Part shown: piece after piece, positions 7,313 to 32,939 of the stretch
Layout of the letters: every line of letters starts with the position of its first letter
How positions within the stretch are numbered: the first letter of the stretch is position 1
Source of the DNA: Acidimicrobiia bacterium
GTDB lineage: Bacteria; Actinomycetota; Acidimicrobiia; Acidimicrobiales; CATQHL01
Assembly (NCBI GenBank): GCA_021296415.1
Contig: JAGWAL010000006.1
Location: 3,710 to 37,382, forward strand
Length of the DNA stretch: 33,673 nt
Reading direction: 5' to 3'
Notes under the pieces: model-generated
What the model saw: only the letters and a program-made list of their open reading frames with translations
Database searches by the model: none
Told to the model about the DNA's origin: nothing
Translations under genes and position numbers: made by a program

Positions 7313-8697
7313 GCCGCCACCGCCGGCGCGTCGGGAAGGTCGGCGCGCGGCTCGGACGGCCGCGCCGCGGCCGCGAACCCGGTCGCCAGCCGTGCCGCCT
7401 CGACCCCGCTGCGCACGGCGCCCTCCATCGTGGCCGGCCAGCCCGTGTCGCACCAGGCGCCGGCCAGGAAGACGCCCGCCAGCGCGGTGCGGGCGCCGGG
7501 GCGCAGCTCGTGGGTGCCCGGTGCCCCGAAGAAGGTTGCGGCGCGCTCACGCGTGACGATCGAGTCGGTGACGCGGGCACCGCCGGCGGCAGGCAGCAAG
7601 CGGGCCATCTCGGCCTCGAAGTGCCGCACCAGATCGGGCGAGCGGCGCCCGATGTACGACCGCGCCGCCGACAGGGAGACGGTCAGGCACTGCCGCCCGT
7701 CGTCGAGTCCGGACGCCTCGGTGTGGTCGAAGACGAACTCCACGTCGCTGCCCACGCCTGCGGCCATCGGCAGCTCCATCACGGGGCGGTCGTAGACAAG
7801 ATGCACGTTCACGATCGGCGAGACGCCGAGCTCCTCGAGTCGCTCCTGGCTCGCCACGGCGCCCGCCGGCAACAGCGGGCCGGCGGCAGCGTGGGGCACC
7901 GCCACGACGACGGCGTCGGCCTCGATCGGCCGGCCGTCGGTCTCCACGACGGGTCGCCCGTCCGGGCCGGGGCGCACGCCCCGCACCGCAGCGCCCGTCG
8001 TGACATCGGCTCCGGCCGCCTCCAGCGTCCGCCTCGCCGCGTCGCCGTGCAGCACCGACAGCGGCACCTTCGCCCAGCCGATGTCACCGGCGTCGGCACG
8101 GCTCAGCAGCCCGGTCCGGAACACCATGGCGGCGAGCTTGAGGGACGCCTCGGCCGCCGGAACGTTGACCGTCGGCAGCACGATGAGATTCCACAGCGCC
8201 TCGACGGTGGCGGTGTCGGTGCCCCGGGCCGCCAGCCAGTCACCGAACGTCATGCAGTCCAGGGCGGGATCCTCGGGGTCCAGGCGGCGCAGCGCCATGG
8301 CGGTGCGGACGACCCGCAGCCGGCGGCGGCGCCCCAGGTGCGGGTAGGTCAGCAGCGACGCCAGGAGGTGCAGCGGTGCGGGGCCCGCGGTGCGGCGGAT
8401 GGCGCCGATCGGGCCGCCCGGACGCAGCACCGGGACCTCCAGCCGGCTCTGCAGGCGCACCTTGTCCGCCGACCCGATCCGCTCCAGGAACCGCCGGTAG
8501 GCGTCGCAGCAGCGCATGAACACGTGCTGGCCGTTGTCGAAGGAGATGCCGCGGTGCTCGAACGACCAGGTCGCACCGCCCAGGCGAGGGCGCCGCTCCA
8601 GCAGCGTCACGGCGGCGCCCCGGTCGGCGGCCTCGACGCCCGCCGCCAGGCCGGCAAGGCCGCCGCCGACCACCACGACCCGCTGCCGATCGTTCAT
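7309..8697 (-). CDS. hpnE: Hydroxysqualene dehydroxylase HpnE (FAD-dependent)
   Basis: A 462-residue flavoprotein of the amine oxidase/phytoene desaturase superfamily. HpnE reduces hydroxysqualene to squalene, the last step of the HpnC-HpnD-HpnE route. The FAD Rossmann motif VVVVGGGLAGLAAG is at residues 7-20, followed by ERRPRLGGATWSF. The second flavin segment near the C terminus reads LAGVFLAGAWCDTGWPATMEGAVRSG, split here only by the usual wrapping of the fold. The ATG 8697 start overlaps the hpnD stop as ATGA. Length and context fit the hopanoid desaturase-like family rather than carotenoid desaturases; no carotenoid gene is nearby. Confidence 0.94.
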   Translation of the reverse strand: MNDRQRVVVVGGGLAGLAAGVEAADRGAAVTLLERRPRLGGATWSFEHRGISFDNGQHVFMRCCDAYRRFLERIGSADKVRLQSRLEVPVLRPGGPIGAIRRTAGPAPLHLLASLLTYPHLGRRRRLRVVRTAMALRRLDPEDPALDCMTFGDWLAARGTDTATVEALWNLIVLPTVNVPAAEASLKLAAMVFRTGLLSRADAGDIGWAKVPLSVLHGDAARRTLEAAGADVTTGAAVRGVRPGPDGRPVVETDGRPIEADAVVVAVPHAAAGPLLPAGAVASQERLEELGVSPIVNVHLVYDRPVMELPMAAGVGSDVEFVFDHTEASGLDDGRQCLTVSLSAARSYIGRRSPDLVRHFEAEMARLLPAAGGARVTDSIVTRERAATFFGAPGTHELRPGARTALAGVFLAGAWCDTGWPATMEGAVRSGVEAARLATGFAAAARPSEPRADLPDAPAVAA

Positions 8698-21838: not shown

Positions 21839-22641
21839 AGCGCCACCTCGGCCAGCCGCGGGCCGGCCTCGGTGGCCGCGACCACCCGTGCCGCCACCGT
21901 TCTCGGCACGAGGAGTGACACGAGCGCGTCACCGCCCTCCCCGCTGCCGAGCCACTGGACGTCGAACACCTCCACGCCCGCCACCACCACGGGGTTCTCC
22001 CAGCCGATCATCGGCTCGGTGGTGAGCAGATCGACGACGTCACCCGCGGCGAGCGTGCTCACGGGGTACCGGCCGGCGCCGAGCCGCAGACCGACCACCG
22101 CGAAGTCGGGGGGGATCACCGGACCGACCTGCAGCAGGGCCCCGCTCACGAACGCGCCCGCTCTGGCGTCGAATGCCACCGTCCGTCCGATGACTTCGCC
22201 GGCGGCGGCTGCGTTCAGCACATCCACCGGGACATCGACATCGAGGCTCGCCACACGGAGGTCGGTCGACGCCACCACCTGGCCGCGCCGGAGGTCGTTG
22301 GCCCAGACGAGCACGGACGCGCGCGGTGCCTCCCGCCCGGCCAGCATGAGGGCGCCGATCGCTCCGAGCCCGACGAGGACGACACCCACCGCAAGCTCCG
22401 GGATGCGCCGACCGATCGAGCGTGCCGCCGCCGGCGCCGCCGGTGACTTGGCGCCTACGGATCCTGGGGACTCGCCCTGTGGCGCCGAACGACCGCCGAG
22501 GGTCGAGGCGCCCGGCGCACCGCGACCCTGTCCGGAGGGGCGGGCCGGCCCCGAGTCCTGCGAACCGGCGAACCGCGCCGCGCCGGATTGGTGGGGGTCG
22601 GAGTTCGCCGGCTCCGTGACTGCAGGACCTGTGAACGGCAC
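21835..22641 (-). CDS. cpaB: Flp pilus assembly protein CpaB (SAF domain)
   Basis: A 268-residue protein. A disordered Pro/Gly/Ser-rich cytoplasmic region (to ~75) precedes one membrane helix (ELAVGVVLVGLGAIGALMLA). An SAF domain begins VLVWANDLRRGQVVASTDLR and includes GEVIGRTVAFDARAGAFVSG. CpaB/RcpC proteins belong to the outer part of the Tad apparatus; in actinobacteria the domain should face the cell wall. The start is GTG 22641, set by AGGAGGT seven bases upstream. An in-frame ATG at 22695 lacks such a site. This is the first gene of the pilus operon. Confidence 0.88.
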   Translation of the reverse strand: MPFTGPAVTEPANSDPHQSGAARFAGSQDSGPARPSGQGRGAPGASTLGGRSAPQGESPGSVGAKSPAAPAAARSIGRRIPELAVGVVLVGLGAIGALMLAGREAPRASVLVWANDLRRGQVVASTDLRVASLDVDVPVDVLNAAAAGEVIGRTVAFDARAGAFVSGALLQVGPVIPPDFAVVGLRLGAGRYPVSTLAAGDVVDLLTTEPMIGWENPVVVAGVEVFDVQWLGSGEGGDALVSLLVPRTVAARVVAATEAGPRLAEVAL

Positions 22642-22648
22642 CGGCTTG

Positions 22649-22655
22649 ACCTCCT
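22649..22655 (-). promoter_or_regulatory. Ribosome binding site deciding the cpaB start
   Basis: A perfect AGGAGGT on the minus strand, 7 nt before GTG 22641. It places the start 18 codons inside the longest open frame. Confidence 0.75.
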
Positions 22656-22748
22656 CTGCACACGTGGGCCGTCTGGGGCTGCCCTCTGGCTGCAAGAGGG
22701 CCGGACGGCGCAGTGCTGCGCTGCCGGCAAGGGCGGTCCGACCGCCGC

Positions 22749-22765
22749 GGGACGGGATCCGTCCC
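22749..22765. promoter_or_regulatory. GC-rich inverted repeat upstream of cpaB
   Basis: GGGACGG (22749-22755) and CCGTCCC (22759-22765) are perfect 7-bp arms around 3 nt. A minus-strand TTGACG lies next to it at 22771-22766, but no suitable -10 follows it. It could be an operator or a leader hairpin for the pilus operon. Confidence 0.4.
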
Positions 22766-22843
22766 CGTCAACTTCCGGCGTTCGCCGCGACACGGCATCC
22801 GGATCGGAATCGAGCGAGGCGTACCTTAGAGCCGTTCACTCGG

Positions 22844-22867
22844 ATTTACAACTAAAACCATGTAAAT
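22844..22867. promoter_or_regulatory. AT-rich inverted repeat between cpaB and the prepilin peptidase gene
   Basis: ATTTACA (22844-22850) and TGTAAAT (22861-22867) are perfect arms around a 10-nt spacer, inside an AT-rich stretch of about 65 bp (22840-22905). It sits between two divergent pilus transcription units. It looks like a dimer-binding operator or a shared promoter element; I cannot name the regulator. Confidence 0.5.
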
Positions 22868-22902
22868 GTTGGAAATATATTCATAGGAGTCTATACCGAA
22901 TC

Positions 22903-23445
22903 ATGCCGAATCGCCGCATCGGGACAGCGTTGGTCGTGCCGGCCCTCGGCATCGGCGCCTCGGTCAGCAATCTGGAGGCGGCTCTCTTCGCCCTCTGGCT
23001 GGCCACCCTGGTGATCCTGTCCTGGTGCGACCTGCGGACCCGCCGTATCCCCACGGGCATCGTCAACCCCGCGACCCTCGCCGGCGCAGTGGCACTCGGC
23101 GCCACGGCCTGGCGCACCGGTGCATTCGCCCGGCTGGGCGCGGCGGTCGCCACCGCCGCTGCCGCCTACGCGGCCTTCGCCGTGCTGCACGCCCTGAACC
23201 CCGGCGGGTTGGGCTACGGCGACGTGCGACTCAGCGGTCTCCTGGGGCTGTTCCTGGGATGGCTCGAACCCGCGGCGATGCCGGCGGGCGCGCTCCTGGG
23301 GGCCGGTGGTGCCGCACTCGTGGCGCTGGTGATGCTGGTGCGCAGCCGCGACCGACGCGCGACGCTGCCCTTCGGACCGTTCCTGGCCGGCGGGGCGGCC
23401 ACGGTGGCGCTGCTGCACAGCGCAGCGCCGCTGGGCTTCGGCTGA
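22903..23445 (+). CDS. Prepilin peptidase (A24 family, CpaA/TadV-like)
   Basis: A 180-residue polytopic membrane aspartic protease that cleaves prepilin leaders. The two catalytic aspartates are in SWCDLRTRRIPT (after the first helix pair) and in the GYGD motif (GGLGYGDVRLSGLLGLFLGW). It lacks the N-terminal methyltransferase domain of PilD, as CpaA/TadV-type peptidases do. ATG 22903 is used as the start; AGGAG lies 12 nt upstream, rather far. Upstream in-frame sequence is a shadow of cpaB. It is divergent from the pilus operon and should process Flp and the two TadE-like proteins, which all carry Gly-1/Glu+5 signals. Confidence 0.93.
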   Translation: MPNRRIGTALVVPALGIGASVSNLEAALFALWLATLVILSWCDLRTRRIPTGIVNPATLAGAVALGATAWRTGAFARLGAAVATAAAAYAAFAVLHALNPGGLGYGDVRLSGLLGLFLGWLEPAAMPAGALLGAGGAALVALVMLVRSRDRRATLPFGPFLAGGAATVALLHSAAPLGFG

Positions 23446-23492: not shown

Positions 23493-24893
23493 TCACTCGC
23501 TGCGGCGCCAGACCTCCAGGGCCGAGCGCATGGCGGGGTCCAGCCACGTCTCGAAGCGCTTGCGGGCCACGGGGAGGGTGTCGCGGAAGTTGATCTGGAA
23601 CGGCTCCCGGGACACCACTTGGTGGTCGTAGATCTCGCCGCCCCGCTTGCGGTAGAAGATGAGGATCGCCGCGATCACGCCACGGAACGACTGCCCGACG
23701 GCGTGGAACGACAGCAGGATCTCCGAGCGACCGTTGGGCGTGTCCAGGCCGATGCGGTTCCAGGCGCTGTAGTTGCGCAGGTTGGCGAAGTACCCCTGGC
23801 GCCGGACGCCGTCGATGACCTGCTTGCGGTGCCAGCTGCGGCGCTCGGGATGATCCGGCGGCGAGTAGTCGGCGAAGACCCGGCGCTCGCCGCTGTCGTC
23901 CTCGATGGCCTCCCCGAGGTCCGACTCGATGCCGGCGATCCGCCCCTTGGCGTGCCAGAAGACCTCCGTCGCCACCGTGACGGCCTCGGCGAAGCGGCGG
24001 CGCAGACTCGACGGACCCGCCCGGAACTGGTCCGAGATCTCCGAGATCACGCCGGTCAGGTCATCGGGCTCGGCGGGCACCCGGCCCAGGGCGCTGACCG
24101 CCTGCAGGAAGCTCCGGCGCTGGGAGGTGGCCACAAGGTGCGACAGGCCGGCGAGCCCGTCGGAGCCGGCGGCGGCCGCCGCGTCGGAGAAGGCGTTGCG
24201 GTCCTCCCGGCGCACGGTGAGCGGGAAGAGATCCGCTGCCATCAGCCAGTACGAGGCGGCCGCCCGCGCCACCCGGTCGCTGATGCGGCCGAACGGTCGC
24301 AGGCGCCCGAGACTGTGGACCAGCCAGGCGGCCGCCAACTCCGGCGCAGAATCGTCGGTCCGCGCCACCAGCACGTCGATGACCTGCCGAAGGCCGTCCG
24401 AACCCGGCTCCGCGCCGGGGTCGGGGCTGACCCAATCACCGGTCGCCGGATCGATCTCGGGAACCTGCAGGCGATGCTGGAGTTCGCCGAGCAGCTCCGG
24501 ATCCACGACCGGGTGCTCGTGGTCCTCCTCGTCGACGCGATCCAGCAGCCACAGCAGCGCCTCCTGCAGACCCGAGAGGACGTCCACCTGCCACTGCGCC
24601 ATGCTTCCGGCGCCGACGGCGTCCCGGCCGGCGGCGTCGAAGCCGTTCGCCGCCAGCCGGAATGCGAGGCTGCGGTCGACGTCGACGAGATGGTCGGCGG
24701 ACGCCAGGTCCAGCGCCCATTCGCGGGCCATCCTCGCCTCCACGGCCGCCAGTCCGTCGGGGTTCTCGTCCAGCAACAGGTCGCGAAGGTCGGCCCAGGC
24801 CTCGGCGATCGCAACGCACTCGAGACTTGGCGCGTCCCAATCGATCACCGCGTGATCCCCCAAGAGACCGTTGGCAGCATCCCCGTTCTGCAT
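23493..24893 (-). CDS. Fic-fold protein with degenerate active site
   Basis: A 466-residue protein with no membrane segment. Residues ~130-255 have the layout of a Fic domain. ELAAAWLVHSLGRL precedes RPFGRISDRVAR at 199-210, and FPLTVRREDRNAF then matches the post-motif strand and loop. Aligned to HPFxxGNGRxxR, the catalytic His is Arg199 and GNG is replaced by Ile-Ser-Asp, while Pro, Phe and both motif arginines remain. Fic enzymes transfer AMP or other groups using that His, so this one should lack normal activity. The C-terminal ~200 residues (YFANLRNYSAWNRIGL, EILLSFHAVGQSF, GVIAAILIFYRKRGG) form a domain I do not recognise. ATG 24893 has no clear ribosome site and follows an AT-rich region. 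It is convergent with the prepilin peptidase gene. Its function is unknown. Confidence 0.8.
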   Translation of the reverse strand: MQNGDAANGLLGDHAVIDWDAPSLECVAIAEAWADLRDLLLDENPDGLAAVEARMAREWALDLASADHLVDVDRSLAFRLAANGFDAAGRDAVGAGSMAQWQVDVLSGLQEALLWLLDRVDEEDHEHPVVDPELLGELQHRLQVPEIDPATGDWVSPDPGAEPGSDGLRQVIDVLVARTDDSAPELAAAWLVHSLGRLRPFGRISDRVARAAASYWLMAADLFPLTVRREDRNAFSDAAAAAGSDGLAGLSHLVATSQRRSFLQAVSALGRVPAEPDDLTGVISEISDQFRAGPSSLRRRFAEAVTVATEVFWHAKGRIAGIESDLGEAIEDDSGERRVFADYSPPDHPERRSWHRKQVIDGVRRQGYFANLRNYSAWNRIGLDTPNGRSEILLSFHAVGQSFRGVIAAILIFYRKRGGEIYDHQVVSREPFQINFRDTLPVARKRFETWLDPAMRSALEVWRRSE

Positions 24894-25298
24894 AGATTTC
24901 TTTTCTATACAACAGCACTCGACAGCAATTGTCGGTGTATTGTAATGTATCTTGAATTATCCTTACCTACGGCGCCTGACGTTAGCAGCTAGTGCAGGGG
25001 TGCCGGAAATCCTTGCGCCGCAGAACTATCGCGGCGGCCTTTCTCGCAAGCATCACGCCTCCACGGGCGTGTCGGAGCTGAAAGTGTCCTGATCAGGCGA
25101 TTCGGTCGCGGCCGTGCCGTGGGTATGAGTCGCGGCGCGCCCGCCTCGGCCGGTGCCGGCGCGCCGCGCCGGTCTCGCCGCGCCGGTGGGTCCGGAATCT
25201 CGGCCCGCCGGCCGAAACCGCCTACGCGCCGCGCCGCCCGCCGGCCGCGCCGACCCGAATTCCACGATCCCGAGGGCCCGCAGTGTGAGAATCGACAC
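24894..25298. other. 405-bp divergent intergenic region
   Basis: The left ~75 bp is AT-rich and should hold the promoter of the Fic-fold gene. It includes an inverted repeat, CGACA (24920-24924) and TGTCG (24930-24934). A 10-bp palindrome CCTGATCAGG lies at 25088-25097. The right ~170 bp is GC-rich, with open frames full of Arg, Ala and Pro that I take as non-coding. GAGAAT before 25299 is a candidate -10 for the topoisomerase gene. I see no RNA gene. Confidence 0.5.
25284..25292 (+). promoter_or_regulatory. Candidate extended -10 for parC
   Basis: TGT then GAGAAT ends 6 nt before ATG 25299, with no Shine-Dalgarno sequence between. The hexamer departs from TANNNT at its first base but has the TGn extension. 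Confidence 0.35.
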
Positions 25299-27773
25299 AT
25301 GAGTTCCCGACGTCGAGCCGGCCCGGTCGCGGGCGTGCCGTTCGCCGGCCAGATCCTGGACACGCCGATCACCGAGGAGGTGTCGGAGTCGTTCCTGGCG
25401 TACTCGCTGTCGGTGATCACCTCGCGGGCGATTCCCGATGCGCGCGACGGTCTCAAGCCGGTGCAGCGCCGCATCCTGTACTCGATGTTGCGCATGGGGC
25501 TGCGGCCCGACTCGCCGCATCGCAAGTGCGCCCGGGTCGTGGGCGACACCATGGGCAACTACCACCCCCACGGCGACGCCGCCATCTACGACGCGCTGGT
25601 GCGCATGGGCCAGGACTTCAGTCGCGCCATCCCGCTGGTAGACCCCCAGGGCAACTTCGGCACGCTCGACGACCCGCCGGCGGCGGCCCGGTACACCGAG
25701 TGCCGGCTGGCGGCGGCCGCCATGGAGATGCTCGACGAGTTGGACGAGGACACCGTGGACTTCCGCCCCAGCTACGACGGCGAGGCCGCCGAGCCGGTCT
25801 GCCTGCCGGGGAGGCTGCCGAACCTGCTGGTGAACGGCACCAGCGGTATCGCCGTGGGCATGGCCACCAACATGGCCCCGCACAACCTGCGTGAGGTCCA
25901 CGAGGCGGTGCGGCTGCAGATGGCCGACCCCGACGTCTCGGTCGAGGACCTGCTGGCCGTGCTGGGTGGGCCGGACTTCCCCTCCGGCGGGGTGATCCTG
26001 GACGACGGGCTGGCCGAGACCTACGCCGGCGGGCGGGGCACGATCCGGATCCGGGCGCGCGCCGAGATCATCGACGTGGGCGGGCGGCGCCAGGCGATCC
26101 GCATCCGGGAGTTGCCATGGCTGGTGGGCCCGGAGAAGGTCGTGGGCCGGATCAAGGAGGTCGTCGCCGCGGGCCGCCTCGAGGGAGTCGAGGACGTCAA
26201 GAACCTGTCGGACCGCCACACCGGATTGTGCATCCAGGTGGACTGCCGGCCCGGCACCGACGCCGCCGCCGTGCTGAGCCGGCTGTGGCGGCTGACTCCC
26301 CTGGAGGAGACGTTCGCCCTCAACAACGTCGTGCTGGCGGGCGGCACCCCCGTGACCTGCTCGCTGAAGGAGTTGCTGGCGCACTACATCGACCACCGGC
26401 TCGACGTGGTCGTGCGCCGCACGCGCCATCGGGCCGCCGCGGCCACCGAGCGGCTGCACATCCTGGAGGGGTTGATGACCGCCCTGGACGGCATCGATCT
26501 GGTGGTGTCGATCATCCGCGGCAGCCGCACCGCGGAGGTGGCCCGGGAGGCCTTGTGCGAGCGCCTGGGACTCAGCGAACCGCAGGCCGAGGCGGTTCTG
26601 GCGATGCGGCTGCGCCGCCTGGCCGCCCTGGAGCGGGAGAAGATCATCGAGGAGGGCGACAAGCTGGTGGCGGCCCTGGCCGGTTACCGCGAGCTGCTGC
26701 GATCCGGCGAGCGGCAGCGGGCCGTGGTGCTGGCCGAACTCGGCGCCCTGGCCGAGCGTTACGGCCGGGATCGCCGGACGCTGATCCGGCCTGCGAGCGA
26801 AGCCGAGGCCGGCACCGCCGCGCCCGCCCGGCCGACCGCCGACAGCGCCGAGGCGTGGCTGGTGACGCTGTCGAGCACCGGGCTGCTGGGGCGGTCGCCG
26901 GTGAGCGCGCCGCGGCGGCGCACGCTGGGGCGCCACGACCTGGTGCGGGCCTCGGCTCTCGCCGGATCCGGGGAGACCGCCTGGGCACTCACCAGCGAGG
27001 GGCGCGCCGTGCCGTTGGCCGCCGCCTCGGTGCCCGAGATCGCCGGACGCAGCCGGGGCGCTCCCGGCGGCGACGTGGCCGGCCTGCCGGCCGGGGAACG
27101 GATCTGCGGCCTCATGGCGGCGACGGCCGCCGCCGGCGGCACCGGGGCCACCTCACGCGATGCCGCCGACGTGGCCGGCGTCGCCGACGTGGTGATGGTG
27201 ACCCGCCGCGGTGCCCTCAAGCGTCTCGCCGGCGAGGAGTTGGGCGCCGGCAACCGGGCTCCCGCCGCCCGCGTCGTGTTCCCCCTCGCCGGCGGTGACG
27301 AGCTCGTGACGGCCTTCGCCTGCCCTTCCGGGGCCGACATCGTGATCGTGGCCGGCGACGGTTCGGTGCTGCGCACCTCCTCGGGGAACCTCCCGCGACG
27401 CAAGGGGCTCGCCGCCGGCACCGCCGGGATGAAGCTGCGGGCGGGGGCCTCGGTCATCGGCGCCGGAGCGGTCTTCGGTGAGGCCTACGTCTTGGTCGTG
27501 ACCACGTCCGGGGCCGCCAAGGCCACACCTGCCGGGGACTTCACGCCGGCGGGGCGCGGCGGCATGGGCGTGCGGGTCTGCTCGCTGCGCGACGGCGAGC
27601 GCCTGCGGGACGCCTACGCGGGGCCGCTCGTGGACGTGTTCGTGGTGACCGGCGCCCGGCCGAGCGCCCCCGACGGCGAGCCGGTGCCGTTCCCCTTCCC
27701 GCCGACGCGGCGCGGCCTCGTGGCCCGCTCGGGCCCCAAGCCGATCCTGGCCGTCGGCCAGAGGAGGTGGTGA
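25299..27773 (+). CDS. parC: Type IIA topoisomerase subunit A (ParC/GyrA)
   Basis: An 824-residue DNA-cleaving subunit of a type IIA topoisomerase. The N terminus has ITEEVSESFLAYSLSVITSR and RDGLKPVQRRILYSM. The catalytic tyrosine is Tyr132 in ARYTECRLA. The quinolone-contact region reads YHPHGDAAIYDALVRM, with Ala where E. coli GyrA has Ser83. The C terminus has beta-pinwheel-type repeats, but I find no GyrA box (QRRGGKG), favouring topoisomerase IV over gyrase. ATG 25299 is preferred; the frame extends upstream only through Arg/Pro-rich sequence. It lacks a Shine-Dalgarno sequence and may be leaderless. The stop is followed after 2 nt by the B subunit. Confidence 0.95.
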   Translation: MSSRRRAGPVAGVPFAGQILDTPITEEVSESFLAYSLSVITSRAIPDARDGLKPVQRRILYSMLRMGLRPDSPHRKCARVVGDTMGNYHPHGDAAIYDALVRMGQDFSRAIPLVDPQGNFGTLDDPPAAARYTECRLAAAAMEMLDELDEDTVDFRPSYDGEAAEPVCLPGRLPNLLVNGTSGIAVGMATNMAPHNLREVHEAVRLQMADPDVSVEDLLAVLGGPDFPSGGVILDDGLAETYAGGRGTIRIRARAEIIDVGGRRQAIRIRELPWLVGPEKVVGRIKEVVAAGRLEGVEDVKNLSDRHTGLCIQVDCRPGTDAAAVLSRLWRLTPLEETFALNNVVLAGGTPVTCSLKELLAHYIDHRLDVVVRRTRHRAAAATERLHILEGLMTALDGIDLVVSIIRGSRTAEVAREALCERLGLSEPQAEAVLAMRLRRLAALEREKIIEEGDKLVAALAGYRELLRSGERQRAVVLAELGALAERYGRDRRTLIRPASEAEAGTAAPARPTADSAEAWLVTLSSTGLLGRSPVSAPRRRTLGRHDLVRASALAGSGETAWALTSEGRAVPLAAASVPEIAGRSRGAPGGDVAGLPAGERICGLMAATAAAGGTGATSRDAADVAGVADVVMVTRRGALKRLAGEELGAGNRAPAARVVFPLAGGDELVTAFACPSGADIVIVAGDGSVLRTSSGNLPRRKGLAAGTAGMKLRAGASVIGAGAVFGEAYVLVVTTSGAAKATPAGDFTPAGRGGMGVRVCSLRDGERLRDAYAGPLVDVFVVTGARPSAPDGEPVPFPFPPTRRGLVARSGPKPILAVGQRRW

Positions 27774-27775
27774 GG

Positions 27776-30016
27776 GTGGCGTCCGGCGACCCGACGCTGC
27801 AGCTGTTCGATCCGGCGCCCGGGGACGCCCCGGGGCCCGCTGATGGCGGCGAGTCCGCGGAGACCGACGAACCCGGGCGGGCCGAGGGTTCCCGCCGTCA
27901 GGCCGGGCGCGGCGGCAACGGCGCCGCCGTGGCGCCGCCGTCGTCAGCGGCGGAGCCTCCTTCCGGCGTGGCGGGAGCGGCGGGCGGAGCGGACACCCCG
28001 GGCGACTACGAGGCCGACTCGATCCAGACCCTGGAAGGGCTCGAGGCGGTTCGCAAGCGGCCCGGCATGTACATCGGCGGCACCGGGGTGGGGGGGCTGA
28101 TGCACCTGGTGTGGGAACTGATCGACAACGGCGTCGACGAGGCGGCGGCCGGGCACGCCCAGCGCATCGACGTGACCTTCGGTGGCGACGGCTCGGTGAC
28201 GGTGCGCGACGACGGCCGGGGCATCCCGGTCGGGAATCCGCCGGGGCGCGACCGCTCGGCCATCGAGGTGGTGTTCTGCGAATTGCACGCCGGCGGCAAG
28301 TTCGGCTCCGGCACCAACGGGTCCGCCTACACCGCCAGCGGGGGGCTGCACGGCGTGGGCGCCTCGGTGGTCAACGCCCTGTCGGAGCGGATGCGCGTCG
28401 AGGTGGGCCGCGACGGCCACGTGTGGCGGCTGGACTTCTGCGAGCGGCAGGCGGGACACCTGGACGGCGGCCGGTTCACGCCGACGCACGAGCTGCAGCG
28501 GCTGAAGCCCACGCGGCGGACCTTCACGCAGGTTCGCTTCTGGCCCGACTGGGAGCTCTTCGACGAGGATGTCGCCTTCGACTTCGCCGCCACCTGCGAG
28601 CGGGTGCGGCTGATGTGCCATCTGGTGCGGGGTTTGCGCCTGACGGTCAGCGACCGGCGCCGGGGCGCGGACCCCGAGCCGTTCGACTTCCGCTCCGAGA
28701 AGGGCCTGGGCGGCCTGGTGGCCGAACTGGCCGCCGGCAGCGCCGTCACCCGGGTGATCGACATCGCCGGGCGGGGCAGCTTCGAGGAGAAGGTGCCCGT
28801 GGACGGCAAGCTCACCGCCGTCGTGCGGGAATGCTCGGTCGCCGCCGCGCTGCAGTGGACCGACGGTTACCGCAGCGACGTGCGCAGCTTTGTGAACACC
28901 ATCCCCACGCCCGTCGGCGGGACGCACCTGGCGGGGTTCGAACGGGCGCTGACCCGGGCGGTCAACGACGTGCTCCTCGACGGCTCCAAGCGGCTCGCCC
29001 GGGCCGGCGAGCGGGCCGGCCGCGAGGAAGCTCAGGAGGGACTTGTCGCCGCCCTGCAGGTCGTGGTGCCGGAGCCGCAGTTCCGGGGCCAGACGAAGCA
29101 GGAACTGGGCACGCCGGCGGTGCAGTCCATCGTCTACGAGGCCGTCAAGTCGGCGCTCGTGGCCTGGTTCACGACCGACGGGCCGCGCAGCAACGTGACG
29201 GCGCTGCGCGCCAAGATCACCGACGCCGTGGAGGCCCGGGCGGCGTCGAAGCGCCTGCAGGCCGACCGGCGCAAGGCGTCGTCGCTCGGCTCGGCGGGCC
29301 TGCCCGACAAGCTGGCCGACTGCCGGGTCCACGGACCGAACAGCGAGCTCATCATCGTGGAGGGCGAGTCGGCGGCCGGTCCGGCCAAGGCGGGCCGCAA
29401 CGCCCACAACGTCGCCATCCTGCCGCTGCGCGGCAAGCTGGTGAACGCCGCCAAGGCCTCGCTGCGCCAGGTGCTCGACAACGCCGAGGCGCAGGCGCTG
29501 TTCCGCTCGGTGGGCGCCGGGGTGGGCGCCGACTTCGACCTGTCCGCCGCCCGCTACGGGCGCATCGTCATCCTCTGCGACGCGGACGTGGACGGCAGCC
29601 ACATCCGCTGCCTGCTGCTGACGCTGATCCATGCGTACATGCGGCCCATGCTCGCCGAGGGCCGGGTCTTCGCCGCCCAGCCGCCGCTGTACACCACGCG
29701 GGTCGGCAAGCAGACCCACCGCGCCTTCAGCGACGCCGAACGTGACGCCGTGACGGCACGTCTGGCCAAGGGCCGGCGCGGCGGCGCCGAGACGATCCGC
29801 TGGCAGCGCTTCAAGGGGCTCGGCGAGATGAACACCGACGAGCTGGCGCACTGCGCCCTGGACCCCGGCACCCGCACGCTGCGACGGATCACGCTTGCCG
29901 ACGCCGCCGCCGCCCGGAAGCTGCTGGAGGTGCTGATGGGGTCAGACGTGGCGCAGCGCCGCGACTACATCGGCCGTCACAGCAGCGTGATCGACCCCGC
30001 CAGCCTGGACATCTGA
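27776..30016 (+). CDS. parE: Type IIA topoisomerase subunit B (ParE/GyrB)
   Basis: A 746-residue ATPase subunit. Residues 1-~77 are a low-complexity extension. The GHKL ATPase domain follows: LEGLEAVRKRPGMYIGG, ELIDNGVDEA, RDDGRGIPV, GGLHGVGASVVNALS. The transducer domain comes next, then the TOPRIM domain with IIVEGESAAGPAKAGR and LCDADVDGSHIR. EGESA instead of EGDSAGG resembles Streptomyces ParE as I recall it. The C terminus has RFKGLGEMNTDEL. GTG 27776 is chosen because GAGGAGG ends 8 nt upstream; GTG 27770 or 27767 are alternatives overlapping the A-subunit stop. The two subunits form one operon, here A before B. Confidence 0.94.
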   Translation: MASGDPTLQLFDPAPGDAPGPADGGESAETDEPGRAEGSRRQAGRGGNGAAVAPPSSAAEPPSGVAGAAGGADTPGDYEADSIQTLEGLEAVRKRPGMYIGGTGVGGLMHLVWELIDNGVDEAAAGHAQRIDVTFGGDGSVTVRDDGRGIPVGNPPGRDRSAIEVVFCELHAGGKFGSGTNGSAYTASGGLHGVGASVVNALSERMRVEVGRDGHVWRLDFCERQAGHLDGGRFTPTHELQRLKPTRRTFTQVRFWPDWELFDEDVAFDFAATCERVRLMCHLVRGLRLTVSDRRRGADPEPFDFRSEKGLGGLVAELAAGSAVTRVIDIAGRGSFEEKVPVDGKLTAVVRECSVAAALQWTDGYRSDVRSFVNTIPTPVGGTHLAGFERALTRAVNDVLLDGSKRLARAGERAGREEAQEGLVAALQVVVPEPQFRGQTKQELGTPAVQSIVYEAVKSALVAWFTTDGPRSNVTALRAKITDAVEARAASKRLQADRRKASSLGSAGLPDKLADCRVHGPNSELIIVEGESAAGPAKAGRNAHNVAILPLRGKLVNAAKASLRQVLDNAEAQALFRSVGAGVGADFDLSAARYGRIVILCDADVDGSHIRCLLLTLIHAYMRPMLAEGRVFAAQPPLYTTRVGKQTHRAFSDAERDAVTARLAKGRRGGAETIRWQRFKGLGEMNTDELAHCALDPGTRTLRRITLADAAAARKLLEVLMGSDVAQRRDYIGRHSSVIDPASLDI

Positions 30017-30077: not shown

Positions 30078-32939
30078 ATGACATTCCCGGGACCCGAGGC
30101 GCTGGGGCGAGGGCTGGTGATTGCCGCGGGCGCCGATCTCGGCGCCGATCTGGCCGCGGCGCAGGACTGGGAGCGGGTGCGGGTGGACGCCGCGCTCCTG
30201 GCCGACGGCGGGGGGCTGGGTGAGACGGTCGAGCGCTTGCACCGGGCCTGGGCAGGCCGGTGGCCGGTGGTCGTGGAACTGGACCTGCCCGCCGGGACGG
30301 TGGCGTGGCTGCGCACGCCGGCCACCGTGGATGTCGAGCCGTACCTGCTGGGCGCCGAGTTCACCCTGCTGGTCGAGCGGCTGCAGTTCCTGCTGTGGCG
30401 CAACAACTACGACGCCCGCAGCGGCGAGCCGGTGTGGTGGTGGGCCCGCAAGGCCGCCGGCCTGGGGGCTCGGCCGGGCGGGCGGACCGACGTGGTGCTG
30501 GACGACGGCACCGAGGCCTGGGTCGACGGCGGGCCGCGCCAGCCTCTGGACCTGCCGGGCATGCCGATCGTGCATGCCGAGTCGCTGGAGTCGGGCCGAC
30601 TGCGGCTGCAGCCCCCGCCCGGCGGCGCAACCGGGGACGGCACCCTGCTGGCTCCCGATCAGCGGGCGGCCGTGGAGCACATCCGCGGGCCGGTGCGTGT
30701 CGTGGCGCCGGCAGGCTCCGGCAAGACCCGCACGCTGAACGCCCGGCTGCTGCACCTGGTGGACGACCGCGGCGTCGAGCCGTCCCTGGTCACCGCCGTG
30801 GCGTACAACAACCGGGCGGCGGCGGAGATGCGCCAGCGGCTGCAGCGCCCCGACCTGCAGATACGGACCATCCATTCGCTCGGCTGGCGGATCGTCCGGG
30901 ACGTGCGACCCGATGCCACCCTGCTCGGCGAGCGGGAGGTGCGGGGCCGCCTGCAGCGGATCCTGCCGCACACCCGGCGGGCCGGCACCGACGTCTTCGG
31001 GCCGTACATCGAGGCCCTGGCGGACGTGCGCATCGCCCTGCGGCACCCCGAGACGGTCGAGGTCGAGCGAAACGACGTGCCGGGGTTCGCCGACATCTTC
31101 GAGACCTACCGCGCCGGTCTGGCCGAGCGGGACGAGTGCGACTACGACGAGCAGGTCTACGACGCCATCCGGCTATTGCTGGCCGATCCCGAGCTGCGGG
31201 CCCGCTGGCAGATGCGCTGCCGGCACCTGCTCGTGGACGAGTTCCAGGACCTCACGCCGGCCTACCTGCTGCTGCTGCGCCTGCTTGCCTCGCCGGCGCT
31301 CAACGTCTTCGGCGTGGGAGACGACGACCAGACCATCTACGGCTACGCCGGGGCCGACCCCGGGTTCCTGCTGGACTACGAGCAGCTGTTCCCGGGCGCC
31401 GGTGAGGCCGCATTGGAGGTCTCCTACCGCTGCCCGCCCGAGGTGGTGAGCGCCGTCGGGCACCTGCTGGTGCACAACACCCGGCGGCTGCCGAAGACCG
31501 TCCGATCCGCCTCGGCCGGGCACACAGGCTCGGCCGGAACGAGGTCACCGGGAGTCGACCCGCTGCAACACCAGCCCTCGAGTCCTGCCGCCTCCGCCCC
31601 CACCACGACACGCACCGAGATCCTCGCCGCATCCGCCAACGACACCCCACGTCCCGGCACCGAGACCCCAACCCCCGTCGCCCCCTTCACGATCCTGCGC
31701 CTGGCCGACGAGCGGATGGCGGCGGCGGCCGCGGCGGTCGTCACGGACTGGCGGGCCGAGGGCGTCCGCGAGTCCGAGATCGCCGTGCTGGGGCGGGTGA
31801 ACTCGATGTTGCTGCCGACTCTGGCGGCGCTGGACGAGGCCGGCGTGGGAGCCCGCTGCCTGCTCGGGACCTCGCTGCTGCACCGCAACCTGATCCGGGC
31901 CGCGCTTGCGTGGATGCGGCTGGCGCTGCGGCCCGACGCCATGGATCCCCGCGACCTGATCGAGGCAGCCCGGCGACCCGGCCGGAAGATCAACCGGCTG
32001 TCCCGCGAACTCCTGGAGGGCGCCTGGGACGTGTCGCTGGAACAGCTCGCCGCCCTCGGCACCGACCTGAACGAACGGCACCGGGAGTACTGGAGCGGCT
32101 TCGTGGCCGACATCAGGGCCGCCTCCCGCCTCGTCGCCGGGGGCTGCGACTCTCGCACACTCGTGGAGTTCCTGATGCAGGAGATCGGCCTCGGGCGGGC
32201 GGCCGGCTCGCTGGACTCCGGGCGCACCCGACCCGACCGGGCGACCCATGCCGACGATCTGCTGGCACTGCGGCGCACCGCCGCCGTCTACCCGGACCCA
32301 GCCGGATTCCCTAGGCAACTGGCGAGCCTGCTGCGACGTACGACCGAGGAGGGCGACGGCGTGCTCCTCACCAGCATCCACCGCGTCAAGGGCTTGGAAT
32401 GGGACCGCGTCGTGGTGTTCAGCGCCGACGAGACGCTGATGCCGCACCAGCTCGCCCTCGACATAGAGGAGGAACGCCGGGTGCTGCACGTCGCCATCAC
32501 CCGGGGCCGCAGCCAGGTCGTGGTACTGGCCGACGAGAGCCGGCCCTCCCGCTTCCTGGACGAGCTGGAAGGCCGCCCGCCGAAGCCCGACCCCGGGCGC
32601 ACGACGCTGCTGGAGGCGATCAGGAGGCCGCCGCGGTCCGCGACCTCCCGGACCGCCAAGGGGGCCACTCCTGTTCCGGGTGACGAGGAGCCCTATGACG
32701 AGGATCTGTACGAGTCGCTGCGTCAGTGGCGCCTGCAGGAGGCCCGCCGGCTGGACGTGCGGGCGTTCCACGTGTTCAGCAACCGGGTGCTCCGGAACAT
32801 CACCCGGGCCGCTCCCACCACGGCGGCTGAGCTGGCCGCAACCTCCGGCGTCGGGCCGGCCAAGCTGGCCTCCTACGGCGCGGCGGTGCTGGATGTCATC
32901 CGAGCCCACCACGCCGGCAACGGGCACGCAGAGAATTAG
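30078..32939 (+). CDS. UvrD/Rep-family DNA helicase with N-terminal extension and HRDC domain
   Basis: A 953-residue superfamily 1 helicase that should translocate 3'-5' on DNA. Residues 1-~188 form an N-terminal region I do not recognise, with FTLLVERLQFLLWRNNYDAR and two tryptophan-rich spots. The motor then begins: LLAPDQRAAVEH, Walker A APAGSGKT at ~210-217, LVDEFQDLTPAYLLLL, GVGDDDQTIYGYAGADP, and later LLTSIHRVKGLEWDRVVV and RRVLHVAITRGRSQ. A Ser/Thr/Pro-rich stretch of ~70 residues interrupts the motor after HNTRRLPKT. The last ~75 residues are an HRDC nucleic-acid-binding domain (ARRLDVRAFHVFSNRVL, TTAAELAATSGVGPAKLASY). ATG 30078 begins 61 nt after parE and has a candidate -10 just upstream. 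Confidence 0.93.
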   Translation: MTFPGPEALGRGLVIAAGADLGADLAAAQDWERVRVDAALLADGGGLGETVERLHRAWAGRWPVVVELDLPAGTVAWLRTPATVDVEPYLLGAEFTLLVERLQFLLWRNNYDARSGEPVWWWARKAAGLGARPGGRTDVVLDDGTEAWVDGGPRQPLDLPGMPIVHAESLESGRLRLQPPPGGATGDGTLLAPDQRAAVEHIRGPVRVVAPAGSGKTRTLNARLLHLVDDRGVEPSLVTAVAYNNRAAAEMRQRLQRPDLQIRTIHSLGWRIVRDVRPDATLLGEREVRGRLQRILPHTRRAGTDVFGPYIEALADVRIALRHPETVEVERNDVPGFADIFETYRAGLAERDECDYDEQVYDAIRLLLADPELRARWQMRCRHLLVDEFQDLTPAYLLLLRLLASPALNVFGVGDDDQTIYGYAGADPGFLLDYEQLFPGAGEAALEVSYRCPPEVVSAVGHLLVHNTRRLPKTVRSASAGHTGSAGTRSPGVDPLQHQPSSPAASAPTTTRTEILAASANDTPRPGTETPTPVAPFTILRLADERMAAAAAAVVTDWRAEGVRESEIAVLGRVNSMLLPTLAALDEAGVGARCLLGTSLLHRNLIRAALAWMRLALRPDAMDPRDLIEAARRPGRKINRLSRELLEGAWDVSLEQLAALGTDLNERHREYWSGFVADIRAASRLVAGGCDSRTLVEFLMQEIGLGRAAGSLDSGRTRPDRATHADDLLALRRTAAVYPDPAGFPRQLASLLRRTTEEGDGVLLTSIHRVKGLEWDRVVVFSADETLMPHQLALDIEEERRVLHVAITRGRSQVVVLADESRPSRFLDELEGRPPKPDPGRTTLLEAIRRPPRSATSRTAKGATPVPGDEEPYDEDLYESLRQWRLQEARRLDVRAFHVFSNRVLRNITRAAPTTAAELAATSGVGPAKLASYGAAVLDVIRAHHAGNGHAEN

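What the first reader, a model, noticed from the sequence alone, without database searches (positions are those of the whole stretch)
23493..24893. Fic-fold pseudoenzyme next to the pilus locus
Residues 199-210 (RPFGRISDRVAR) align without gaps to the Fic motif HPFxxGNGRxxR. The catalytic His has become Arg, and the anion-binding Gly-Asn-Gly has become Ile-Ser-Asp. The scaffold Pro, Phe and the two arginines are kept, and the preceding and following Fic elements are recognisable. The frame is intact over 466 codons with normal composition, so selection seems to keep the protein for something other than canonical AMP transfer. It may bind nucleotide or a partner, or do a different reaction. An unrecognised C-terminal domain of about 200 residues is attached.
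Basis: partly seen in the sequence, partly recalled or inferred. Interest (0 to 1): 0.68.

Follow-up and report, generated by a model that had tools for sequence, protein, structure and literature searches.

The report
Conserved dead-enzyme Fic protein beside topoisomerase
A bacterial symbiont genus of (probably) marine sponges keeps, at one fixed chromosomal site, a copy of a Fic enzyme whose catalytic motif has been replaced by a new conserved motif, so the protein probably works by binding something rather than by attaching AMP to proteins.

Summary
The 466-codon minus-strand gene at 23493-24893 is a real gene with a Fic fold whose catalytic motif reads RPFGRISDRVAR. It is not a recent local mutation. 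Orthologues (69-94% identity among themselves) sit at the same locus in 7 of 8 genomes of the genus; in the eighth, the contig ends inside parC. All seven have RPFGxxSDR(V/L)AR: Arg199, Ser205 and Asp206 are invariant, and Arg199 is kept through four different codons. The metal-ligand position and the first Gly vary freely. The target-docking flap is deleted, and its remnant evolves neutrally (dN/dS 0.97). The rest is constrained (0.34 overall; 0.17 over residues 351-466).

The protein arose once, on a long stem branch, from an active-type family (HPFxDGNGR) with the same C-terminal domain. That domain matches no Pfam family and no PDB fold. I conclude it is a true pseudo-AMPylase kept as a non-enzymatic binding protein. 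Nucleotide binding in the usual mode is unlikely.

But the sister genus has the same pilus-par junction without the gene, so that link may be incidental. New variant of a known kind; function unproven.

The parts
23493..24893 (-). Fic-fold pseudo-AMPylase gene, 466 codons
   Evidence: ORF; seven orthologues in the genus; Fic fold; dN/dS 0.34
24264..24299 (-). Degenerate Fic motif RPFGRISDRVAR (residues 199-210); genus consensus RPFGxxSDR(V/L)AR
   Evidence: relatives outside the clade have HPFxDGNGRVAR
24348..24503 (-). Remnant of the flap region (residues 131-182): the RPNNPTRxDGxxHEYCPPEHV segment of intact relatives is deleted; the remainder evolves neutrally
   Evidence: Alignments; dN/dS 0.97
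24684..24725 (-). Former N-terminal inhibitory helix (residues 57-70). Intact relatives read ETGIIE(R/G/N), i.e. (S/T)xxxE; here the Thr is lost and the Glu is kept in 6 of 7 orthologues (Asp67 in the window)
24108..24347 (-). Rest of the Fic core (residues 183-262) including the helix after the motif
   Evidence: AF2 pLDDT mostly 65-91; dN/dS 0.36
23496..24107 (-). C-terminal domain (residues 263-466): long helix, helix, antiparallel sheet, C-terminal helix; most conserved part; shared with the intact Fic relatives
   Evidence: AF2 model pLDDT 75, pTM 0.74; no Pfam match; no significant PDB or viral fold match; dN/dS 0.17 for residues 351-466
24894..25298 (.). Divergent intergenic region between the Fic gene and parC (about 405 bp)
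25299..27773 (+). ParC/GyrA-like type II topoisomerase subunit A (neighbour, not part of the gene)
   Evidence: NCBIfam PRK05561, E 2.9e-204, above its cut-off
27767..30016 (+). ParE/GyrB-like type II topoisomerase subunit B (neighbour); keeps the Tyr that Fic toxins AMPylate (NGSAYTASGGLHG)
22588..23445 (+). Probable prepilin peptidase of the Tad-type pilus locus (named from sequence by eye), convergent with the Fic gene (neighbour)
   Evidence: ORF and synteny; no NCBIfam match

Best explanation
The gene encodes a genus-specific pseudo-AMPylase: an ancient paralogue of a self-inhibited, class II-like Fic protein with a C-terminal sensor-like domain. It lost the catalytic His, the metal ligand, the anion-binding GNG loop and the docking flap, and then fixed a new loop (RPFGxxSDRxAR). 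Most likely the Fic fold is now a rigid scaffold, and the protein acts by binding a partner or ligand through its strongly conserved C-terminal domain, without transferring AMP. Shown: fold, homology, single origin, loss of the motif and flap, conservation of the new motif, selection. Inferred: no AMP transfer (about 0.85 likely), no canonical ATP binding, and action by binding (about 0.55 likely).
For: Fic homology. Conserved new motif in 7 of 7 orthologues, with Arg199 kept through CGA, CGG, CGC and AGG codons. Metal-ligand position 203 is R/R/S/L/N/N/A and first-Gly position 204 is I/G/L/M/L/L/G. Flap deleted and its remnant neutral (dN/dS 0.97) while the gene as a whole is 0.34, similar to neighbouring parC 0.27 and the probable prepilin peptidase 0.37. 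C-terminal residues 351-466 most constrained (0.17). Single origin, support 100/100, stem 2.41 changes per column. Intact relatives with the same C-terminal domain. Precedents: the BepC FIC domain recruits GEF-H1 without needing its motif or flap (PMC7842960); an acidic residue at the second Gly is judged to block triphosphate binding in Bep8 (PMC8401265).
Against: No partner is known, and no biochemistry could be done. The C-terminal fold matches nothing, so 'binding domain' is inference. The Fido fold can catalyse without the Fic motif: AvrB is a metal-independent rhamnosyltransferase (PMC10866546). The conserved Arg199/Asp206/Arg207/Arg210 set could be a new active site.
Confidence: 0.55

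Rival explanations
1. It is a topoisomerase IV regulator. The pseudo-Fic still recognises the ParE/ParC encoded next door, binds without modifying it, and inhibits it or shields it from active Fic toxins.
For: Divergent from parC in every genus locus examined at length. The ParE target tyrosine is present. Fic proteins are known to AMPylate ParE, and the inactive Fic-1 H135A still binds ParE (PMC7479194). Genus genomes carry up to 13 Fic domains, so shielding would have a use.
Against: The flap that registers targets is gone. The sister genus has the same pilus-par junction with no Fic gene, and other genera have this topoisomerase without it. Intact relatives are not near par genes. The whole neighbourhood is syntenic in the genus, so adjacency carries little weight.
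Confidence: 0.13
2. It is an antitoxin or dominant-negative partner of active Fic proteins in the same cell, working by Fic-Fic contact or by competing for the signal sensed by the shared C-terminal domain.
For: Active-type paralogues with the same C-terminal domain in G006 and G007. Inhibitory-helix Glu kept in 6 of 7 orthologues. Heterologous Fic-Fic neutralisation is known in Campylobacter fetus (PMC5651007).
Against: No paralogue with this C-terminal domain was found in G001, G003 or G004 (G001 and G003 are 91-94% complete), yet the gene is conserved there. Intact relatives carry their own inhibitory helix. The inhibitory Thr is lost.
Confidence: 0.12
3. It is an enzyme with new chemistry. 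The rebuilt loop (Arg199, Ser205, Asp206, Arg207, Arg210) forms a different active site that uses another co-substrate, as AvrB does.
For: Seven motif positions besides P and F are invariant across 69-94% identity, whereas 203 and 204 are free. AvrB precedent, metal-independent (PMC10866546).
Against: Loss of the flap removes the usual way of presenting a target chain. Conservation could equally be structural. No co-substrate pocket could be examined on the model.
Confidence: 0.13
4. It is a decaying gene or an assembly artefact.
For: The window assembly is 77.5% complete; the window copy has the longest terminal branch of the clade and Asp67 in place of Glu.
Against: Intact frames in seven separate assemblies with no stops, and dN/dS of 0.34.
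Confidence: 0.02

Closest known systems
Class II-like Fic proteins with this C-terminal domain (L008, L009, L011, L012, L022, L025 and others; HPFxDGNGRVAR), scoring to PADLOC PDC-S04 and SoFic models
   Same: Homologous over the full length (28-33% identity, profile probability 100%), same domain order, same C-terminal domain
   Different: They keep His, Asp, GNG, flap and inhibitory Thr/Glu; the window clade has lost all of these but the Glu (6 of 7)
BepC, Bartonella effector with non-canonical motif HxFxKGNGRxxR (PMC7842960)
   Same: Fic domain whose known action on GEF-H1 is binding, independent of motif and flap
   Different: BepC keeps His, GNG and ATP binding, and is an injected effector with OB and BID domains
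Bep8 (motif PFxxGNE; PMC8401265)
   Same: Acidic residue at the second glycine, thought to exclude triphosphate nucleotides; degenerate motif on a kept Fic fold
   Different: Host-targeted effector with BID domain; first Gly and Asn kept
Campylobacter fetus Fic2 (PMC5651007)
   Same: Degenerate motif, predicted not to adenylylate, in a cell with several other Fic proteins
   Different: Only the second Gly and final Arg are changed; toxic to E. coli ribosomes; paired with Fic1 as antitoxin
AvrB (Fido superfamily; PMC10866546)
   Same: Fido fold without the Fic motif; no metal needed
   Different: A plant-pathogen effector with demonstrated rhamnosyltransferase activity; not known to share the C-terminal domain
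Doc clade D2, consensus Qx[F/Y]x[D/E][G/V]NKR (PMC4454073)
   Same: A natural clade in which the catalytic His is replaced
   Different: His to Gln, rest of the motif largely kept, single-domain Doc proteins

Membership tests
Fic/Fido superfamily (PF02661) | Fic fold | tested here: met
   AF2 plus Foldseek: listed PDB matches are Fic proteins (6i7l E 8.5e-5; 3cuc TM 0.64-0.66 by target)
Fic/Fido superfamily (PF02661) | Homology to members over the curated cut-off | tested here: met
   Full-length profile match to intact relatives, E 5.8e-55; the window protein alone is below the Pfam cut-off (14.4 against 24 bits)
Active Fic AMP transferase | Motif HxFx(D/E)GNGRxxR | tested here: not met
   RPFGxxSDR(V/L)AR in 7 of 7: His, acidic residue, Asn and second Gly changed in all, first Gly in 5 of 7; F and both Arg kept
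Active Fic AMP transferase | Flap hairpin that docks the target | tested here: not met
   Segment deleted relative to intact relatives; remnant neutral
Active Fic AMP transferase | AMP transfer from ATP | not testable with these tools
   Needs an assay on purified protein
Class II Fic (N-terminal inhibitory helix) | (S/T)xxxE(G/N) before the Fic core | tested here: not met
   Thr lost in all; Glu kept in 6 of 7, Asp in the window
SoFic / PDC-S04 anti-phage defence | Match to PADLOC models | tested here: inconclusive
   Window protein E 0.025 to PDC-S04; the intact relatives match SoFic and PDC-S04 strongly
SoFic / PDC-S04 anti-phage defence | Protection against phage | not testable with these tools
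   Needs plaque assays
Bep effectors | C-terminal BID domain for type IV secretion | tested here: not met
   The window protein matches no Pfam family but Fic at E up to 10; no BID match among members
FicT toxin-antitoxin (class I) | Adjacent small antitoxin gene | tested here: not met
   Neighbours are parC (divergent) and a probable prepilin peptidase (convergent); no small gene was seen in between, though ORFs under 60 aa were not listed

The most novel reading that the evidence does not exclude
A chromosomal pseudo-AMPylase, descended from a Fic toxin or defence protein, that has become a resident non-covalent regulator or shield of topoisomerase IV, next to whose genes it is fixed.
Probability: 0.1. 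Interest if true: 0.75.

Novelty: new variant of a known kind. Interest (0 to 1): 0.42.

Why it matters
Fic proteins with lost motifs are known mostly as injected effectors. This is a vertically kept chromosomal clade in which catalytic residues, nucleotide loop and docking flap were all lost while the C-terminal domain and a rebuilt loop are under selection. It offers a clean natural case for asking what a Fic fold does without AMP transfer, and points to an uncharacterised C-terminal domain shared with active-type Fic proteins, some on phage-like contigs.

Tried and rejected
Recent local mutation: rejected, the motif is fixed in 7 orthologues. Decay or pseudogene: rejected, no stops, dN/dS 0.34. 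Chance resemblance to Fic: rejected. Class I toxin-antitoxin pair: no antitoxin gene seen adjacent. Functional link to parC-parE from synteny: weakened, since the sister genus G008 has the pilus-par junction without the gene, other genera carry the same topoisomerase without it, and intact relatives are not near par genes. A C-terminal domain identity from Pfam, NCBIfam, PHROGs, PDB profile search and two fold searches: nothing significant; the weak CapZ hits (E about 0.1, TM 0.27) are not believed. Plasmid search with the window protein: no match. More phage members: only two full-length ones from four scans.

Full report
Observation. The 466-codon gene on the minus strand at 23493-24893 is present. 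Residues 199-210 read RPFGRISDRVAR. The Pfam Fic model finds the place but only at 14.4 bits, E 0.071, below its cut-off, and NCBIfam gives nothing. The single sequence is therefore not enough to call it Fic, and relatives were needed.

Relatives. Seven of the eight genomes of the window's genus hold an orthologue, in separate assemblies; five of these were also found as named records (Acidimicrobiia or unclassified bacterial MAGs). Isolate names such as IRC4 and APA suggest marine sponges, which I infer and did not check. The eighth genome, G002, has a topoisomerase contig that ends inside parC (L103), so its gene may simply be unassembled. Identity among the seven is 69-94%. More distant full-length relatives (28-33% identity) occur in other families, and in G006 and G007 of the same genus as paralogues; they carry HPFQDGNGR(V/I)AR or HPFEDGNGRVAR. 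Searches of 397 genomes of the order, 395 of the class and 396 of the phylum found no member of the degenerate clade outside the genus (with motifs read).

Homology and fold. Profiles of the degenerate and intact sets match over 447 columns with E 5.8e-55. The intact profile gives the window protein 239.5 bits against 7.9 for the best of 2000 shuffles. The joint profile finds solved Fic structures (3cuc, E 2.3e-23; FICD). The AF2 model is modest overall (mean pLDDT 61) but good over much of residues 20-266, and the 50 PDB matches listed by Foldseek are Fic proteins. The alignment used for that model held two intact relatives from phage-like contigs.

What was lost and what was fixed. In all seven orthologues the catalytic His is Arg. 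The acidic metal ligand is R, R, S, L, N, N or A. The first Gly is I, G, L, M, L, L or G. Asn is Ser, and the second Gly is Asp. Pro, Phe and both Arg are kept. So 'ISD' should be read as 'xSD'. Arg199 is kept through four different codons (CGA, CGG, CGC, AGG), which points to selection on the amino acid; Ser205 and Asp206 use one codon each and are less telling. The flap segment of intact relatives (RPNNPTRxDGxxHEYCPPEHV) is deleted, and what remains of the region has dN/dS 0.97, as neutral sequence would. The rest is constrained: N-terminal part 0.31, Fic core 0.36, residues 351-466 0.17. Overall 0.33-0.34 resembles the neighbours (parC 0.27, parE 0.23, probable prepilin peptidase 0.37). These are Nei-Gojobori estimates without correction for base composition.

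Origin. A maximum-likelihood tree puts the seven in one clade (100/100) on a stem of 2.41 changes per column, among intact proteins. Terminal branches are 0.02-0.28. This reads as one origin, fast change, then constraint.

C-terminal domain. Residues 263-466 are shared with the intact relatives. Modelled alone (from residue 262) the domain has pLDDT 75 and pTM 0.74: long helix, helix, antiparallel sheet, C-terminal helix. No Pfam, PDB-sequence, PDB-fold or viral-fold match is significant. In the phylum sample it was seen in 7 of 396 genomes; where the frame is whole, it is attached to a Fic domain. It is the most conserved part of the degenerate clade.

Setting. This order is the same in all genus loci long enough to show it. 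Fic toxins AMPylate ParE, and a His-to-Ala mutant still binds it (PMC7479194), so a topoisomerase link is attractive; the ParE tyrosine they modify is present. But in the sister genus the pilus genes and parC lie about 560 bp apart with neither the peptidase nor the Fic gene between them, about eight other genera have this topoisomerase without the gene, and intact relatives are not near par genes. Adjacency may be an accident of insertion.

Mechanism. I think it most likely that this is a pseudo-AMPylase acting by binding, with the Fic fold as scaffold and the C-terminal domain as the contact or sensor. Nucleotide binding in the usual pose is unlikely, because an acidic residue at the second glycine is thought to exclude triphosphates in Bep8 (PMC8401265). 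A binding-only role has a precedent in BepC (PMC7842960); Fic-Fic neutralisation has one in C. fetus (PMC5651007); new chemistry on a motif-less Fido fold has one in AvrB (PMC10866546). None of these is shown here.

Novelty. Degenerate Fic motifs, including loss of the His, have been described (PMC4454073; PMC8401265). What is new is this chromosomal clade, its fixed replacement motif, the paired loss of motif and flap, and its unassigned C-terminal domain. The library searched holds open-access papers only. I call it a new variant of a known kind.

Noticed in passing
G006, G007, G004, G001: Genus genomes are rich in Fic domains: 13, 10, 10 and 8 matches to PF02661; the window's own assembly shows none at E 0.001.
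   Followed up: partly
G001:C76:45988-46308 and G005:C432:7186-7503: A second, ordinary Fic gene (HPFLDGNGR(L/V)GR, 389-391 aa) lies about 6-8 kb beyond parE on the same contigs.
   Followed up: no
L021:3001-4470 and L047:2983-4464: Two contigs from the viral collection carry intact members of the same Fic family with the same C-terminal domain; by eye, L047 lies beside a terminase-like ORF and L021 near capsid-like ORFs.
   Followed up: partly
L037 (G017:C114) and L146 (G894:C143): Other Fic proteins with the His replaced: GPFAAGNGRVGR and QPFADGNGRVAR, rest of the motif largely kept.
   Followed up: no
L096 (G008:C2), about 8080-8640: In the sister genus the pilus genes and parC lie close together, without the prepilin peptidase and Fic genes found between them in the window's genus.
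   Followed up: yes
window 30078-32939, + strand: UvrD/Rep-like helicase with a C-terminal stretch like the end of RecQ (TIGR01389, residues 870-943).
   Followed up: no
window 25299-30016: The parC-parE type topoisomerase is sporadic in the order: present in the genus and about eight of the other genera sampled, absent in most.
   Followed up: partly
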